A DNA stretch of 40,890 nucleotides from Bifidobacterium breve (GCA_945861935.1 CAMAVU010000007.1:1-40890); one strand, 5' to 3'. Numbered from the stretch's first letter, positions 34,995-40,890 are shown. Notes: a model not told the origin generated them from the sequence alone. Program-made: numbers and translations.

Positions 34995-35000
34995 TGCCAC

Positions 35001-35660
35001 ATGGCGAATGACAGGGAAGCCGCTTGGGCCGCTGCGGGTGTCGCCTGCGCCCGGCTCATCGAGGACGGCATGCGCGTAGGGCTCGGCACCGGCAGGGCCG
35101 CCACGGCGGGAATCCGCGCACTCGGACACCGGGTCCGCGAGGAGGGCATCCGCGTGATCGGCGTCCCCACCTCGGACGCCAGCAGGCGTGTGGCCGACGA
35201 GGAGGGCATCGCACTGGGCGAACCGGGCCCACCCCTGGACCTCGCGTTCGACGGCGCCGATGCCATTGACCCGATGGGCCTGTGTGTGAAGGGCGCGGGC
35301 GGGGCGATGGTGCGGGAGCGCGTGCTGGCCGAGAGCGCCGGGCGCTTCCTCGTGCTGGTGGACGCGCCGAAGATCGTGTCGTCGCTCGACGAGTGGGGCA
35401 CCCTTCCTCTGGCCGTCGTCCCGTTCGCAGCCGACGCGGTGGCCCGGGAACTCGCCGGGTTCTCCCCCACGCCCCGCCCGGTGCGCAGCGACGACGGAAT
35501 GGTGCTGATGGACCTTTCGGTCCCCACCGGATCGGACTGGGTGGCGGTCGCCGGCCAGGCCCGCTCCCTCGCGGGCGTGCTCGACCACGGGCTGTTCCGC
35601 CTGGTTCTTGCCGACGTCATCATCGGGGCTCCCGACGGATCGGTGACGACGGCGGCGTGA
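35001..35660 (+). CDS. rpiA: Ribose-5-phosphate isomerase A
   Basis: Interconverts ribose 5-phosphate and ribulose 5-phosphate in the pentose phosphate pathway. 219 residues, the family's usual length. Marks are MRVGLGTGRAATAGIRALG for the phosphate loop, VPTSDASRRVADEEGI, LDLAFDGADAIDPMG with the catalytic acidic residues, and VKGAGGAMVRERVLA with the catalytic Lys. ATG 35001 follows a TACCCT hexamer by six bases. It heads the operon with murT: its TGA overlaps the murT GTG. A pathway link to cell-wall amidation is not obvious. Confidence 0.93.
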   Translation: MANDREAAWAAAGVACARLIEDGMRVGLGTGRAATAGIRALGHRVREEGIRVIGVPTSDASRRVADEEGIALGEPGPPLDLAFDGADAIDPMGLCVKGAGGAMVRERVLAESAGRFLVLVDAPKIVSSLDEWGTLPLAVVPFAADAVARELAGFSPTPRPVRSDDGMVLMDLSVPTGSDWVAVAGQARSLAGVLDHGLFRLVLADVIIGAPDGSVTTAA

Positions 35661-37039
35661 GCACGAGGGCCCGCGCATCGGCGGCGGTTGCCCGCGCCGT
35701 GGGCAGGGCGTCGCGTGCGCTCGGCCGGGGAGGCGGTACCGCGCTTCCGGGGCATGTGCTCGTGAGGTTGGACCCCGGAGCCGTCGGACGGCTCGCCGCC
35801 GACCTCCCCGGGGGTTGCATCCTCATCTCCGCGACCAACGGCAAGACCACAACCACGCGCCTCCTCGTCGCGGCCCTGCGATCCAATGGTCAGAGGGTCA
35901 TCACGAACGCCGCGGGCGCCAACCTCATGAGTGGAGTGGCCACCGCGTTGGCGGAGGGCAGGACGGGTCAGGGCGCGCCGGCATGCGGGGCCTTCGAGGT
36001 GGACGAGGCCGCCCTCCCGGATGTGGCGGCCCGGGTGCGCCCCACCGTCCTCCTGCTGATGAACCTCTTCCGGGACCAACTCGATCGCCACGGGGAACTC
36101 GAGGCGATTGCCGGGCGGTGGGGAGCGATGCTGGAGGGGATGGACCCGGTACCCCGCCTTGTTCTGTGCGCGGACGACCCGCTCATCGCCGCCCTGCCCC
36201 GCCCCGGATCGGACGTCATCTGGTTCGGCATCGACGACCCCGCCGTGTCTGCAGGCGGCCTTCCGCATGCCGCCGACTCCATCCGCTGCCGCGCCTGTGC
36301 GACTCCGCTTGTATACGAAGAGGTATGGCTGGGTCACATGGGGACCTGGGCCTGCCCGGCCTGCGGCCTGCGGCGCCCCACCCCTGTCGTGGCCGTGGTG
36401 CATGCGGGGCTCGACGGAGCCCGGGGTGCCCGGCCCCGGTTCCGCACCACCGAGGGCGACGTCACCCTTGATCTGGGGCTGCCCGGCCTCCACAACGTGA
36501 TGAACGCCGCAGGGGCCCTGGCCGCGGCTCTGGCGATGGGGGTCCCCGCCGCCGACGCCGCTGTGGCGATTTCGGGTGTGGGCGCGGCGTTCGGCCGGGG
36601 CGAACGCGTGCGCGTGGATGACCGCGAGGTGGTACTGCTCCTCGCGAAGAATCCCGCCGGGGCCAACGAGAACGTCCGCACACTGCTCCTCGAGGACCGC
36701 GACCACGATCTGCTCGTGGCGCTGAACGACCGCATCGCCGACGGCCGGGATGTGTCATGGATCTGGGATGTTGACTGGGAGCCCATGCTCCCGCGCATCC
36801 GGCGCCTCACCGCCACCGGCACCCGGGCGCATGACCTGGCCCTGCGGTTCCGGTACGCGGGGCTGGACATGAGCCGCGTCCACGTCATCCCCGACCATGG
36901 GGCCGCTCTGGCCGGGGCACTGGCGGCGCTCCCCGCCGGAGGCACTCTGGACGTGCTCCCGACGTACACCGCAATGCACGAGATCCGCACCGATCTGGTG
37001 GCTCGCGGGGCGGCGAGCGCGTTCTGGGACCCAGCCTGA
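35657..37039 (+). CDS. murT: Lipid II isoglutaminyl synthase, MurT subunit
   Basis: With GatD it amidates the alpha-carboxyl of the D-Glu in lipid II, using ATP and glutamine; MurT activates the substrate. 460 residues. It shows the Mur-ligase P-loop SATNGKTTTTRLL (Lys63), NAAGANLMSGVATAL, NLFRDQLDRHGELE, and the MurT-specific zinc ribbon with C211, C214, C233 and C236. The C-terminal domain (DUF1727) starts near VVLLLAKNPAGANENVRTL, with a WDVDWE motif. GTG 35657 overlaps the rpiA stop (GTGA), so translation is coupled. The gatD gene is not adjacent but follows one gene later, which is unusual. Confidence 0.94.
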   Translation: MSTRARASAAVARAVGRASRALGRGGGTALPGHVLVRLDPGAVGRLAADLPGGCILISATNGKTTTTRLLVAALRSNGQRVITNAAGANLMSGVATALAEGRTGQGAPACGAFEVDEAALPDVAARVRPTVLLLMNLFRDQLDRHGELEAIAGRWGAMLEGMDPVPRLVLCADDPLIAALPRPGSDVIWFGIDDPAVSAGGLPHAADSIRCRACATPLVYEEVWLGHMGTWACPACGLRRPTPVVAVVHAGLDGARGARPRFRTTEGDVTLDLGLPGLHNVMNAAGALAAALAMGVPAADAAVAISGVGAAFGRGERVRVDDREVVLLLAKNPAGANENVRTLLLEDRDHDLLVALNDRIADGRDVSWIWDVDWEPMLPRIRRLTATGTRAHDLALRFRYAGLDMSRVHVIPDHGAALAGALAALPAGGTLDVLPTYTAMHEIRTDLVARGAASAFWDPA

Positions 37040-37076
37040 GATGCCACGCACCCCCATCACCCCCGCGAGGGGGTTC

Positions 37077-37814
37077 ATGGCAGAACACGCCCACTACGAC
37101 GACGACGCCGGGTTCTGGGAGGAGCACGCCGACCGTCTGGGTGGCCCCGTGGTGGATCTGGGAGCGGCCGTCGGCCGCGTCACCATCCGGGTGGCGTTGC
37201 AGGGGCACGAGGTGTGGGCGGTGGATACCGATCGCGAGATGCTGGATGTCCTCGCCGAGAGGGCCCTTCGCGCCGGGGTACGTGGACTCATCCACGCGGT
37301 CCCGGGCTCGATGACCGACCCCCTCCCCGTCTCGGACGCCGGCCTCGTGATGGTTCCGATGAACACCCTCCAACTCCTGCGCCAGAGGTCCGATCAGGTG
37401 AGGTGCCTCGCGAGCGCTGCGTCCGGGCTGCGCGCAGGAGGCGAGATGATCTTCGATCTGGCCATGCCGCACCTCCGGGAGACCCGGGCCCTCCAGGGGG
37501 AGATCCTCGACACCGGCCGTGGCCTGGACGGCGACACCGGTGACGTTCTCCTGCACACAACCACTTTCGACGAGGTCACGCCAGCCACCGGCGAGGTCCG
37601 GATGCGCATCGTCGTGGACCGTATCCACCGCGACGGATCGCGCACCTCGGTGGAGCGTCCCCACCACCTGCACCTGTACGACCCGGACGAGATCCCCGCG
37701 CTCGCCCTGGACGCCGGCTTGGAAGTCGTCGCGGCCTGCGGGGGCTTCCGGGGCGAGCCGCTGGGTCCCGACTCCGACCGGCATGTGTGGCGGCTGCGAC
37801 GGCCCGGCCCATGA
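37077..37814 (+). CDS. SAM-dependent methyltransferase inserted between murT and gatD
   Basis: A 245-residue class I methyltransferase, soluble. Motif I is PVVDLGAAVGRVTIRVA (Ala replaces the usual Cys/Gly in the loop), motif II has the ribose-binding acidic residue in VWAVDTDREMLDVLAERA, motif IV lies near DAGLVMVPMNTLQLL and post-motif GLRAGGEMIFDLAMPHL is clear. The C-terminal half is beta-rich and carries PHHLHLYDPDEIPALALDAG, a common small-molecule methyltransferase ending. ATG 37077 has GAGGGGG just before it; ATG 37041, one base after the murT stop, is the alternative. Its stop overlaps the gatD start (ATGA). By position it may act on a cell-wall precursor or carrier, but the substrate is unknown. 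Confidence 0.85.
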   Translation: MAEHAHYDDDAGFWEEHADRLGGPVVDLGAAVGRVTIRVALQGHEVWAVDTDREMLDVLAERALRAGVRGLIHAVPGSMTDPLPVSDAGLVMVPMNTLQLLRQRSDQVRCLASAASGLRAGGEMIFDLAMPHLRETRALQGEILDTGRGLDGDTGDVLLHTTTFDEVTPATGEVRMRIVVDRIHRDGSRTSVERPHHLHLYDPDEIPALALDAGLEVVAACGGFRGEPLGPDSDRHVWRLRRPGP

Positions 37815-38611
37815 CCGACCCCTCGCACGTCGTCCGCCTGTGCCACCTCTACCCCGCGGAGATGAACATCTACGCCGACCGGGGCAACATCGCGGTCCTC
37901 AGACGCAGGCTCGAATGGCGGGGGCTGGGCCTCGTGGTCCACGAGGCCGGGATCGGGACATCCCTCACACCAGGGGACCATGACCTGTACTACCTCGGCG
38001 GCGGTCAGGACCGCGATCAGGCGATCGTCGCCGACGACCTTGCCCGCACGAAGGGTCCCGCCCTCTGCTCCGCCGTGGAGGACGGCGCCGCCCTGCTCGC
38101 CGTGTGCGGCGGCTTCCAGTTGACCGCTCGGGGATACGTCGCCGCGGACGGGTTCAGGATGCCGGGAATCGGCCTGCTGGACGCCGAGACCGTGGCCGGG
38201 CCCACCCGCCTCATCGGCGACGTCCTCATCGAGGCAACCCTCGATGGCCGATCGGGCGAGGTGGCCGGATTCGAGAACCATGCGGGACGCACCGTGCTCG
38301 GGCCAGGCGCCACGCCGTTCGGCCGTGTCATCGCCGGCCACGGAAACGACGGACGGGACGGCACTGAGGGGGCCACGCGCCTCCGGGCGATCGGAACATA
38401 TCTCCATGGGCCGCTCCTTCCGCGCAACCCCTGGGTGGCCGACACCCTGCTGCACTGGGCCCTCGCCCACCGGACGGGCGAAACCATCGTGCTTGATCCC
38501 CTCGACGATGCGCTGGAGGCGGAATCCCGGCAGGTCGCGAGCGGGCGTGCCCGGGGTGACCGCACCGAACGCCTTATCGGTCGCACCCGACGCGCTCGGT
38601 CCTCGCGGTGA
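37811..38611 (+). CDS. gatD: Lipid II isoglutaminyl synthase, GatD glutaminase subunit
   Basis: A glutamine amidotransferase of the CobB/CobQ-like class I type that feeds ammonia to MurT. 266 residues. The start VRLCHLYPAEMNIYADRGNI and YYLGGGQDRDQ are typical of GatD. The nucleophile is Cys99 in LLAVCGGFQL and the catalytic His is H199 in GTYLHGPLLPRNP. GFENHAGRT marks the substrate-channel region. ATG 37811 overlaps the methyltransferase stop by four bases. Last gene of the rpiA operon; a weak hairpin follows. Confidence 0.94.
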   Translation: MTDPSHVVRLCHLYPAEMNIYADRGNIAVLRRRLEWRGLGLVVHEAGIGTSLTPGDHDLYYLGGGQDRDQAIVADDLARTKGPALCSAVEDGAALLAVCGGFQLTARGYVAADGFRMPGIGLLDAETVAGPTRLIGDVLIEATLDGRSGEVAGFENHAGRTVLGPGATPFGRVIAGHGNDGRDGTEGATRLRAIGTYLHGPLLPRNPWVADTLLHWALAHRTGETIVLDPLDDALEAESRQVASGRARGDRTERLIGRTRRARSSR

Positions 38612-39062: not shown

Positions 39063-40890
39063 TCAGGACGCGCCCAAGATGAACGCGACCGACCCCGCGA
39101 CGCCACGGCTGTCGGTGACACTCACGCGGAACGCTCCGGGGAACCCCGACTGGGACCGAAACCCCGTGACATCCACCGGGGAGGCCTGGTCACCTGTGAT
39201 GTCCCCGTTGCCGAGTTGGCCGTTGGCGTCAGTCCCCCAGCACCGCACCTCGCCCCGCCTGAGGACGGCGCAGGCGTGGTAATAGCCTGTGCTGATACCT
39301 CCCACCCCGCTGGCGAGGCCGAGGACGACTCCGGGGGAGGATACGTTGCCGCCGATGACGCCGCTCCCCGCTTCGCCGTTGACGTTGCTTCCCCAGCACA
39401 TCATGTCGCCTGCGGTGTTGGCGGCGCAGGTGTGGTACTCCCGCGTGCTCACCTGAGTGACATTGGACAGCGCCCCGGAGCCATTGGTGTCAACCACGAT
39501 CACCGGCGAGTCCTGTTGGGCTGTGCTCGCCCCCCCATTGCCGAGCTGGCCGTAGCCGTCAAACCCCCAGCACCTCACCCCACCCGCGGTCGTCACAGCG
39601 CAGGTATGCTTGGCGCCTCCTGCATCGACCTGAGCGATCCCGGTCAGCGGCGACGAGTCGGCGCTCGAGGTACGGACGTCCATCGGGGAGGTCTGGTTGG
39701 CTGTGACGGTCCCGTTGCCGAGTTGGCCGTTGCTGTCACTCCCCCAGCACTTCACCGCGCCCACGGTGGTGAGGGCGCAGGTGTGGCTCCACCCTGCGCT
39801 CACCTGCGCGATCCCCGTCAGCGCCGACGTGTCGGCGCCCGAGGTATGCACGTTCACCGGGGAGGGCTGATTCGCCGTGACCGCCGACCCGTTACCGAGC
39901 TGGCCGTTGCTGTCGTCCCCCCAGCACTTCACCCCACCTGCGGTGGTGACTGCGCAGGCGTGTTGCCACCCTACGTTCAGCTGAGCGATGCCCGTCAACG
40001 CCGATGTGTTGCCGCTCGCCGTGTGCACGTCCACGGGCGCGGTCTGGTCCGCGTCGCTGCCGTTGCCGAGTTGGCCGAAGCCGTCATACCCCCAGCACTT
40101 CACGCCCCCCGTGGTGGTGAGGGCACATGTGTGGTCATGACCTACGCCAATTTGCGAAATGCCGGAGAGGGGCGTGGAAACGGAAGGCGAACTCGACACA
40201 TCCACCGGGGTGGTCTGGGTGGTCGTGGTGGTGGCGCCGTTTCCGAGTTGGCCGCTGATGTCTCTCCCCCAGCACTTCACCCCGCCCGCGGTGGTGAGGG
40301 CGCAGGTGTGGGACTCGCCCGCGCTCACCTGCGCTGCGCGGAAGTTCCAAGCGGAGGCGGCGGGTCCGGTGAAGGTGCCGGTGGCCGTGTTGAAGGTGAC
40401 GCCTGTGGGCAACGTGCCCTGCACCGAGAAGGTGCGGGTGCCCTGCCCCCCACTCACCACGGGGCTCAGCACCTGCGCCGCCTGCCCGCTGGTGAACGTG
40501 GTGGTGGGGTAGGAGATGGCCGGGCTGGTGATGGCTGCGATCATCACCTGCCCGGAGGAGGAGGTGCCCACCTGATCGGTGGCGGTGATCCTCACCCACG
40601 CCGGGAAGCCCGCCTGGAGGCCGGTGCCGCTCACCAGAGCGGGGGTGGTCTGATTGGCGTCGGTGTTCGTGCCCAGTCTGCCGTAGAGCCCGGACCCGAA
40701 GCAGCGCGCCTCGCCGCTGGTCATCACCAGGCACGAGGAGGCGGTGCCTGCAGCCACCAGCGCGACATCAGGCAGTGCGCTCCCGCCGGGAGCCCCCAGC
40801 ACATCCACCGCGCTGGCGCTGGTGATATTGGTGCCGTCCCCGAGCCTCCCGCTTGATCCGGCCCCCATGCACTTGACGGTGGCGGTGCTC
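39063..40890 (-). CDS. RCC1-repeat protein with an Ig-like insertion (partial, 5' end outside the window)
   Basis: The gene enters from the right edge already within a repeat (V-K-C-M-G-A-G) and ends at TGA 39065-39063. About 608 residues are visible. Nine RCC1-type blades can be counted, two before and seven after an insertion. The typical unit is H-T-C-A-L-T-T-x-G-G-V-K-C-W-G then GQLGNG and P-V-D-V, about 55-60 residues long. Each has a Cys pair that could form a disulfide, which fits a secreted beta-propeller. The insertion (about 110 residues after repeat two) contains LPTGVTFNTATGTFTGPAAS, the signature of putative Ig domains of the He_PIG type. A partial Ig-like tail (FRVSVTDSRGVAGSVAFIL) ends the protein. 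Start and signal peptide are not visible. Likely an extracellular or surface binding protein. Confidence 0.88.
   Translation of the reverse strand, partial: STATVKCMGAGSSGRLGDGTNITSASAVDVLGAPGGSALPDVALVAAGTASSCLVMTSGEARCFGSGLYGRLGTNTDANQTTPALVSGTGLQAGFPAWVRITATDQVGTSSSGQVMIAAITSPAISYPTTTFTSGQAAQVLSPVVSGGQGTRTFSVQGTLPTGVTFNTATGTFTGPAASAWNFRAAQVSAGESHTCALTTAGGVKCWGRDISGQLGNGATTTTTQTTPVDVSSSPSVSTPLSGISQIGVGHDHTCALTTTGGVKCWGYDGFGQLGNGSDADQTAPVDVHTASGNTSALTGIAQLNVGWQHACAVTTAGGVKCWGDDSNGQLGNGSAVTANQPSPVNVHTSGADTSALTGIAQVSAGWSHTCALTTVGAVKCWGSDSNGQLGNGTVTANQTSPMDVRTSSADSSPLTGIAQVDAGGAKHTCAVTTAGGVRCWGFDGYGQLGNGGASTAQQDSPVIVVDTNGSGALSNVTQVSTREYHTCAANTAGDMMCWGSNVNGEAGSGVIGGNVSSPGVVLGLASGVGGISTGYYHACAVLRRGEVRCWGTDANGQLGNGDITGDQASPVDVTGFRSQSGFPGAFRVSVTDSRGVAGSVAFILGAS

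What the first reader, a model, noticed from the sequence alone, without database searches (positions are those of the whole stretch)
35657..38611. A methyltransferase gene sits between murT and gatD in a translationally coupled operon
MurT and GatD form one enzyme and their genes are normally adjacent. Here a class I SAM methyltransferase lies between them; its stop overlaps the gatD start by four bases, and its own start is either just after or 37 nt beyond the murT stop. Such tight coupling suggests matched production and a joint role. The protein could methylate a peptidoglycan or lipid precursor (for example the amidated stem peptide), a quinone, or the MurT/GatD complex itself. Seen: gene order, overlaps and motifs. 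Known: MurT/GatD chemistry. Inferred: a link to cell-wall modification.
Basis: partly seen in the sequence, partly recalled or inferred. Interest (0 to 1): 0.65.

Follow-up and report, generated by a model that had tools for sequence, protein, structure and literature searches.

The report
Methyltransferase inside murT–gatD operon
In two related orders of soil and freshwater actinobacteria, a methyltransferase gene of unknown function sits, and has stayed, between the two genes for a cell-wall amidating enzyme, which hints at an undescribed modification of the cell-wall precursor but does not prove one.

Summary
rpiA–murT–methyltransferase (MT)–gatD lie head to tail at 34998–38611; the MT stop overlaps the gatD start by 4 nt, and the MT most likely starts at 37041, 1 nt after murT. 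The order is not an assembly oddity. All 40 Miltoncostaeales genomes in which murT was found carry the MT directly after it, as do 73 of 76 murT-bearing genomes of the Conexibacter family (f7) and most sampled genomes of two further Thermoleophilia families. The operon MTs form one clade (support 100/96), are under purifying selection, and are absent beside murT elsewhere in the phylum sample. The fold is a class I MT closest to amine N-methyltransferases (CcbJ, CypM, CorZ). The MT is not an obligate part of MurT/GatD: two genomes kept it after losing murT and gatD, five kept murT–gatD without it, and in two murT moved away while MT–gatD stayed. Sister-clade MTs sit equally tightly in a histidine operon (hisF–MT–hisI) or beside LemA, so coupling alone does not identify the substrate. 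Best reading: an independent amine (less likely carboxyl) methyltransferase acting on a peptidoglycan precursor in parallel with amidation. The substrate is inferred, not shown.

The parts
34998..35660 (+). rpiA, ribose-5-phosphate isomerase A; stop overlaps murT start by 4 nt; next to murT in the inspected Miltoncostaeales loci L143-L145
   Evidence: Pfam PF06026 and NCBIfam TIGR00021 above cut-off; synteny
35657..37039 (+). murT, lipid II isoglutaminyl synthase subunit: ATP motif TNGKT at residues 60-64 and four Cys 211/214/233/236 of the zinc-ribbon-like insertion
   Evidence: Pfam MurT_C 100 bits; residues; compared with PMC6085368
37041..37814 (+). class I SAM-dependent methyltransferase (MT), 257 aa from ATG 37041 (alternative ATG 37077, 245 aa); SAM motif DLGAAVGR, MNTLQ motif after strand 4
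   Evidence: Pfam Methyltransf_25 36 bits; alignment A1; AlphaFold2 model pLDDT 85
37811..38611 (+). gatD, glutaminase subunit: CGGFQ Cys99 and LHGP His199
   Evidence: Pfam GATase_3 118 bits; residues
37811..37814 (+). ATGA overlap of MT stop and gatD start; the same 4-nt overlap is available in 33 of 36 Miltoncostaeales loci

Best explanation
The MT is an old, stably inherited third gene of a murT-MT-gatD operon of Miltoncostaeales and Conexibacter-type Solirubrobacterales (SHOWN: order, clade, selection). It has the fold of the amine N-methyltransferases that act on peptides, amino acids and amino sugars (SHOWN by model comparison). It works as a separate enzyme, not as a subunit of the amidotransferase (SUPPORTED by gene losses in both directions). 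I propose that it transfers a methyl group from SAM to a peptidoglycan precursor in the cytoplasm (UDP-MurNAc-peptide, lipid I or lipid II), most likely to a free amine such as that of meso-DAP, less likely to a free carboxylate, in parallel with amidation of D-iGlu by MurT/GatD (INFERRED). Sharing one transcript would keep the two modifications at matched levels (INFERRED).
For: Order: 40/40 murT-bearing Miltoncostaeales genomes; 73 of 76 murT-bearing f7 genomes; also f5 and f9 (L139-L142, L150, L213, L215, L266-L270). One clade for operon MTs, 100/96 and 97, with shared M95 and Q99 that non-operon relatives lack. Purifying selection. MT-gatD stays coupled even where murT moved (L260, L261). 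Neighbourhood holds peptidoglycan and lipid genes: dut-hflX-dapL-dapF on one side, and in f5/f7/f9 a DAGK/YegS-type lipid kinase upstream of murT. Fold and sequence neighbours: CcbJ, CypM, YunM, CorZ, MtfA, TylM1; CorZ methylates a free peptide amine (PMC12951456). C. woesei wall is A1-gamma with meso-DAP (PMC3035278). Methylated Glu, mDAP or terminal Ala is reported for M. smegmatis, function unknown (PMC9239049, PMC12632261).
Against: No direct evidence on the substrate. Sister MTs (f22) are equally tightly embedded between hisF and hisI, and others adjoin LemA in Rubrobacter-like and f3 genomes, so operon coupling is a weak guide to substrate. The C-terminal, substrate-lid half differs strongly between Miltoncostaeales and the other operon MTs, which allows different substrates. 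The fold neighbours include C- and S-methyltransferases too (PsmD, NmbA). f7 genus g78 has extra MT copies outside any murT context.
Confidence: 0.38

Rival explanations
1. The MT is a small-molecule or lipid methyltransferase with no link to peptidoglycan; it was caught in the murT-gatD operon of a common ancestor and kept there because overlapping genes are hard to separate.
For: MT retained alone after loss of murT and gatD in G080 and G100; extra free-standing copies in g78; sister MTs similarly embedded in a his operon; in G100 the MT start overlaps the stop of the lipid kinase gene by 4 nt.
Against: The MT has stayed with murT/gatD across two orders despite several rearrangements, and MT-gatD stays together when murT leaves.
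Confidence: 0.4
2. The MT is a carboxyl O-methyltransferase that makes methyl esters on stem-peptide carboxylates (D-Glu, DAP or D-Ala), an alternative way to mask the charges that MurT/GatD masks by amidation.
For: Methylated Glu, mDAP or terminal Ala are reported for M. smegmatis, function unknown; conserved Arg residues in the Miltoncostaeales lid, R194 and R239, would suit an anionic substrate; MT retained where amidation genes are lost (G080, G100).
Against: Closest folds act on amines, carbon or sulfur; R194 and R239 are not shared with the other operon MTs; a link to the mycobacterial modification is not tested.
Confidence: 0.12
3. The MT methylates MurT or GatD, or is a third subunit of their complex (one of the first reader's options).
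For: Tight coupling and conserved order.
Against: murT-gatD persist without MT in g76, G226 and G120, and MT persists without them in G080 and G100; extra murT-gatD pairs in G448 and G201 lack it.
Confidence: 0.05

Closest known systems
murTgatD operon (lipid II isoglutaminyl synthase)
   Same: Same two enzyme genes, same order, conserved Cys99/His199 of GatD and Cys tetrad of MurT (PMC6085368)
   Different: Papers read here describe a two-gene operon; here a MT gene lies between, giving three coupled genes
CorZ/BytZ, CypM and daptide-type peptide N-terminal methyltransferases
   Same: Best PDB sequence match (CorZ) and near-best fold matches (CypM); class I fold; shared DY/HY..D motif near the N-terminus with CorZ
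   Different: About 25% identity to CypM, no RiPP cluster, daptide model far below cut-off (58.7 against 175 bits)
CcbJ (celesticetin methyltransferase)
   Same: Top Foldseek hit, TM 0.71-0.80, 26% identity
   Different: Antibiotic tailoring enzyme; here a chromosomal housekeeping neighbourhood
Methylated lipid II/peptidoglycan of Mycobacterium smegmatis
   Same: A methyl group on the stem peptide is documented; function unknown (PMC9239049, PMC12632261)
   Different: No enzyme is named in the passages read; the operon MT was not found next to murT outside Thermoleophilia in the phylum sample

Membership tests
MurT/GatD amidotransferase | MurT_C and Mur ligase central domain; ATP motif | tested here: met
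   Pfam above cut-off; TNGKT at 60. NCBIfam MurT equivalog matched at 212 bits, below its cut-off of 800
MurT/GatD amidotransferase | GatD catalytic Cys and His | tested here: met
   Cys99 in CGGFQ, His199 in LHGP, compared with Cys94/His189 of S. aureus
MurT/GatD amidotransferase | Third GatD triad residue (Asp32/Glu19) | tested here: inconclusive
   Acidic residues are present near the N-terminus (E17, D23) but were not aligned to the solved structure
Class I SAM-dependent methyltransferase (Methyltransf_25 clan) | Rossmann fold with motif I and acidic residue after strand 2 | tested here: met
   Pfam 36 bits over cut-off 27; invariant D27, G29, G33, D50; model
Daptide/CypM-like peptide N-methyltransferase | Score above curated family cut-off | tested here: not met
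   NF041820 58.7 bits, cut-off 175
Daptide/CypM-like peptide N-methyltransferase | Methyl transfer to a free amine | not testable with these tools
   Fold similarity only
UbiE/MenG quinone methylase | Match to a family model | tested here: not met
   No match at E 0.001 in Pfam or NCBIfam for the window MT; weak UbiE matches appear only in sister MTs
Peptidoglycan-precursor methyltransferase | Methylated precursor dependent on the gene | not testable with these tools
   Needs mass spectrometry and a mutant

The most novel reading that the evidence does not exclude
murT-MT-gatD encodes a previously unrecognised peptidoglycan-modifying methyltransferase, fixed in two actinobacterial orders, that N-methylates (or methyl-esterifies) the stem peptide of lipid II and would be a dedicated enzyme for stem-peptide methylation.
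Probability: 0.35. Interest if true: 0.8.

Novelty: new variant of a known kind. Interest (0 to 1): 0.52.

Why it matters
Amidation of lipid II by MurT/GatD controls cross-linking and is reported essential in mycobacteria and Streptococcus pneumoniae. Stem-peptide methylation has been reported from mass spectra (M. smegmatis, P. aeruginosa) with its function described as unknown. A methyltransferase locked into the murT–gatD operon over two orders is a concrete candidate for such chemistry, testable in a cultured organism with a complete genome (Conexibacter woesei).

Tried and rejected
(1) Co-loss of murT and MT in G027 and G029 looked like strong linkage, but both contigs begin exactly beside the missing locus (at or inside the metallo-beta-lactamase-fold gene that flanks rpiA), so this is probably an assembly gap and is not counted. 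(2) Independent origin of the Miltoncostaeales and Solirubrobacterales operon MTs: disfavoured by the tree and by the shared dut flank, but an AU test did not reject Miltoncostaeales MTs grouping with f23 (p 0.16), while it rejected grouping with f3/f22 (p 0.014). (3) Quinone or tRNA methylase: no support. (4) Literature: the searches made found no report of a methyltransferase in the murT–gatD operon, nor of N-methylated muropeptides with a methyltransferase; subscription papers are largely missing from the library. (5) Rfam and tRNA scans: nothing in the operon.

Full report
Identity of the window. The window is contig C7 of a 1.6-Mb, 78-contig genome. Its closest named relatives by this MT include MAGs labelled Miltoncostaeales and Thermoleophilia, so it is taken to be Miltoncostaeales (class Thermoleophilia).

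The observation. rpiA (34998–35660), murT (35657–37039), MT (37041 or 37077–37814) and gatD (37811–38611) lie head to tail on the + strand. rpiA/murT and MT/gatD overlap by 4 nt each. The upstream MT start (37041) is favoured because its extra residues MPRTPITPARGF match MTGSEITPARGF and MTGSDISPARGF of relatives that also start 1 nt after murT. MurT and GatD keep their key residues, judged against the published structure (PMC6085368).

Spread of the gene order. Of 42 Miltoncostaeales genomes searched, 40 have MurT_C and the same 40 have the MT directly downstream. Reading 38 of these loci gave murT–MT in all 38 and MT–gatD in the 36 not cut by a contig end, with a 4-nt overlap available in 33. 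The two genomes without either gene have contigs that begin at this very spot, so they are probably assembly gaps. In the class, families f5, f7 and f9 share the order, whereas f6 and f11 loci, and the f2 and f3 loci read, have murT–gatD directly adjacent. f7 contains G189, whose single 6,359,369-base contig matches Conexibacter woesei DSM 14684 by size (the identification rests on my own knowledge of that genome size). In f7, 76 of 78 genomes have murT; 73 of these have the MT directly after it. In a phylum sample of 197 genomes no other class showed an MT next to murT (by comparing coordinates).

One origin. A careful maximum-likelihood tree puts all operon MTs on one side of a branch with 100/96 support (97 in a reduced set). 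They share M95 and Q99, where non-operon relatives have F and L. Both lineages also have dut near the gatD side and dapL/dapF beyond. The AU test rejects Miltoncostaeales MTs with f3/f22 (p 0.014) but not with f23 (p 0.16), so one origin is likely rather than certain.

Separability. Three kinds of exception are informative. MT kept, murT and gatD gone: G080 (no murT or strong gatD match genome-wide; L131) and G100 (no murT genome-wide, no gatD at the locus; L231); both have intact flanks on one contig, and in G100 the lipid kinase stop and MT start overlap by 4 nt. MT gone, murT–gatD kept: G199, G255, G258 (f7 genus g76), G226 (f5) and G120 (f9). murT moved away, MT–gatD kept in place: G250 and G254 (f9). 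Hence MT is neither an obligate subunit nor strictly dependent on amidation.

What the protein is. It is a class I SAM methyltransferase (Methyltransf_25). The AlphaFold2 model (pLDDT 85) is closest to CcbJ, CypM, YunM, 3d2l, PsmD, MtfA, TylM1 and others, mostly amine N-methyltransferases with a beta-sheet lid (chemistry of the named enzymes partly from general knowledge). The best sequence match in the PDB is CorZ (9sot), which methylates the free N-terminal amine of a cyclic peptide (PMC12951456). It falls below the cut-offs of all curated NCBIfam methyltransferase models it matched. dN/dS in close pairs is about 0.1–0.3, in the range of its neighbours or somewhat higher.

Mechanism. The wall of C. 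woesei is A1-gamma with meso-DAP (PMC3035278). Lipid II carries a free amine on DAP and free carboxylates (general knowledge). An amine N-methyltransferase fold, together with co-inheritance with the enzyme that amidates the same precursor, makes methylation of the precursor, probably on an amine, the best specific proposal. It is an inference. The main caution is that sister MTs are inserted just as tightly in hisF–MT–hisI of f22 and lie beside LemA in f23 and f3, so members of this MT family enter tight operons of unrelated pathways. The substrate-lid half also differs between the two operon lineages. I therefore give the peptidoglycan amine reading about 0.38, a methyl-ester variant about 0.12, and an unrelated substrate about 0.40.

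Novelty. Published descriptions read here treat murTgatD as a two-gene operon, and the searches found no report of this arrangement. It is a new variant of a known operon, with an untested but well-defined biochemical prediction.

Noticed in passing
L205:4506-6227 and L206:4124-5993: In two f22 genomes a sister MT lies between hisF and hisI, with 4-nt overlaps on both sides in L206: the same kind of insertion in an unrelated pathway.
   Followed up: partly
L200:5208-7684, L201:5306-8662, L134:5069-8256, L208:2391-5630: Sister MTs of Rubrobacter-like (f23) and f3 genomes lie beside LemA, followed by an M48 peptidase (f23) or a DUF2207 membrane protein (f3).
   Followed up: partly
L136:4261-6506, L137:6533-8829, L270:5485-7781: In f5/f7/f9 a DAGK/YegS-type lipid kinase gene lies directly upstream of murT, often overlapping it; kinase-murT-MT-gatD looks like the fuller operon there.
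   Followed up: partly
L141:6227-6811, L142:6517-7098: Two f9 genomes have a gamma-glutamyl cyclotransferase-like (GGACT) gene between murT and MT.
   Followed up: no
L236:3747-6064, L237:1354-3651: Two f7 genomes (G448, G201) hold a second murT-gatD pair without MT.
   Followed up: no
L232, L233, L234, L235: Four genomes of f7 genus g78 carry a second, free-standing MT copy; in a quick tree three of these copies fall apart from the genus's own operon copies, near another genus (g24), suggesting transfer.
   Followed up: partly
L007, L009: Public MAG records titled Acidobacteria bacterium REEB500 and Bifidobacterium breve MaE-04nov19-327 carry this Miltoncostaeales locus, so their labels look wrong.
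   Followed up: no
window 39063-40868, - strand: Large RCC1-repeat protein near the window end, downstream of gatD on the opposite strand.
   Followed up: no
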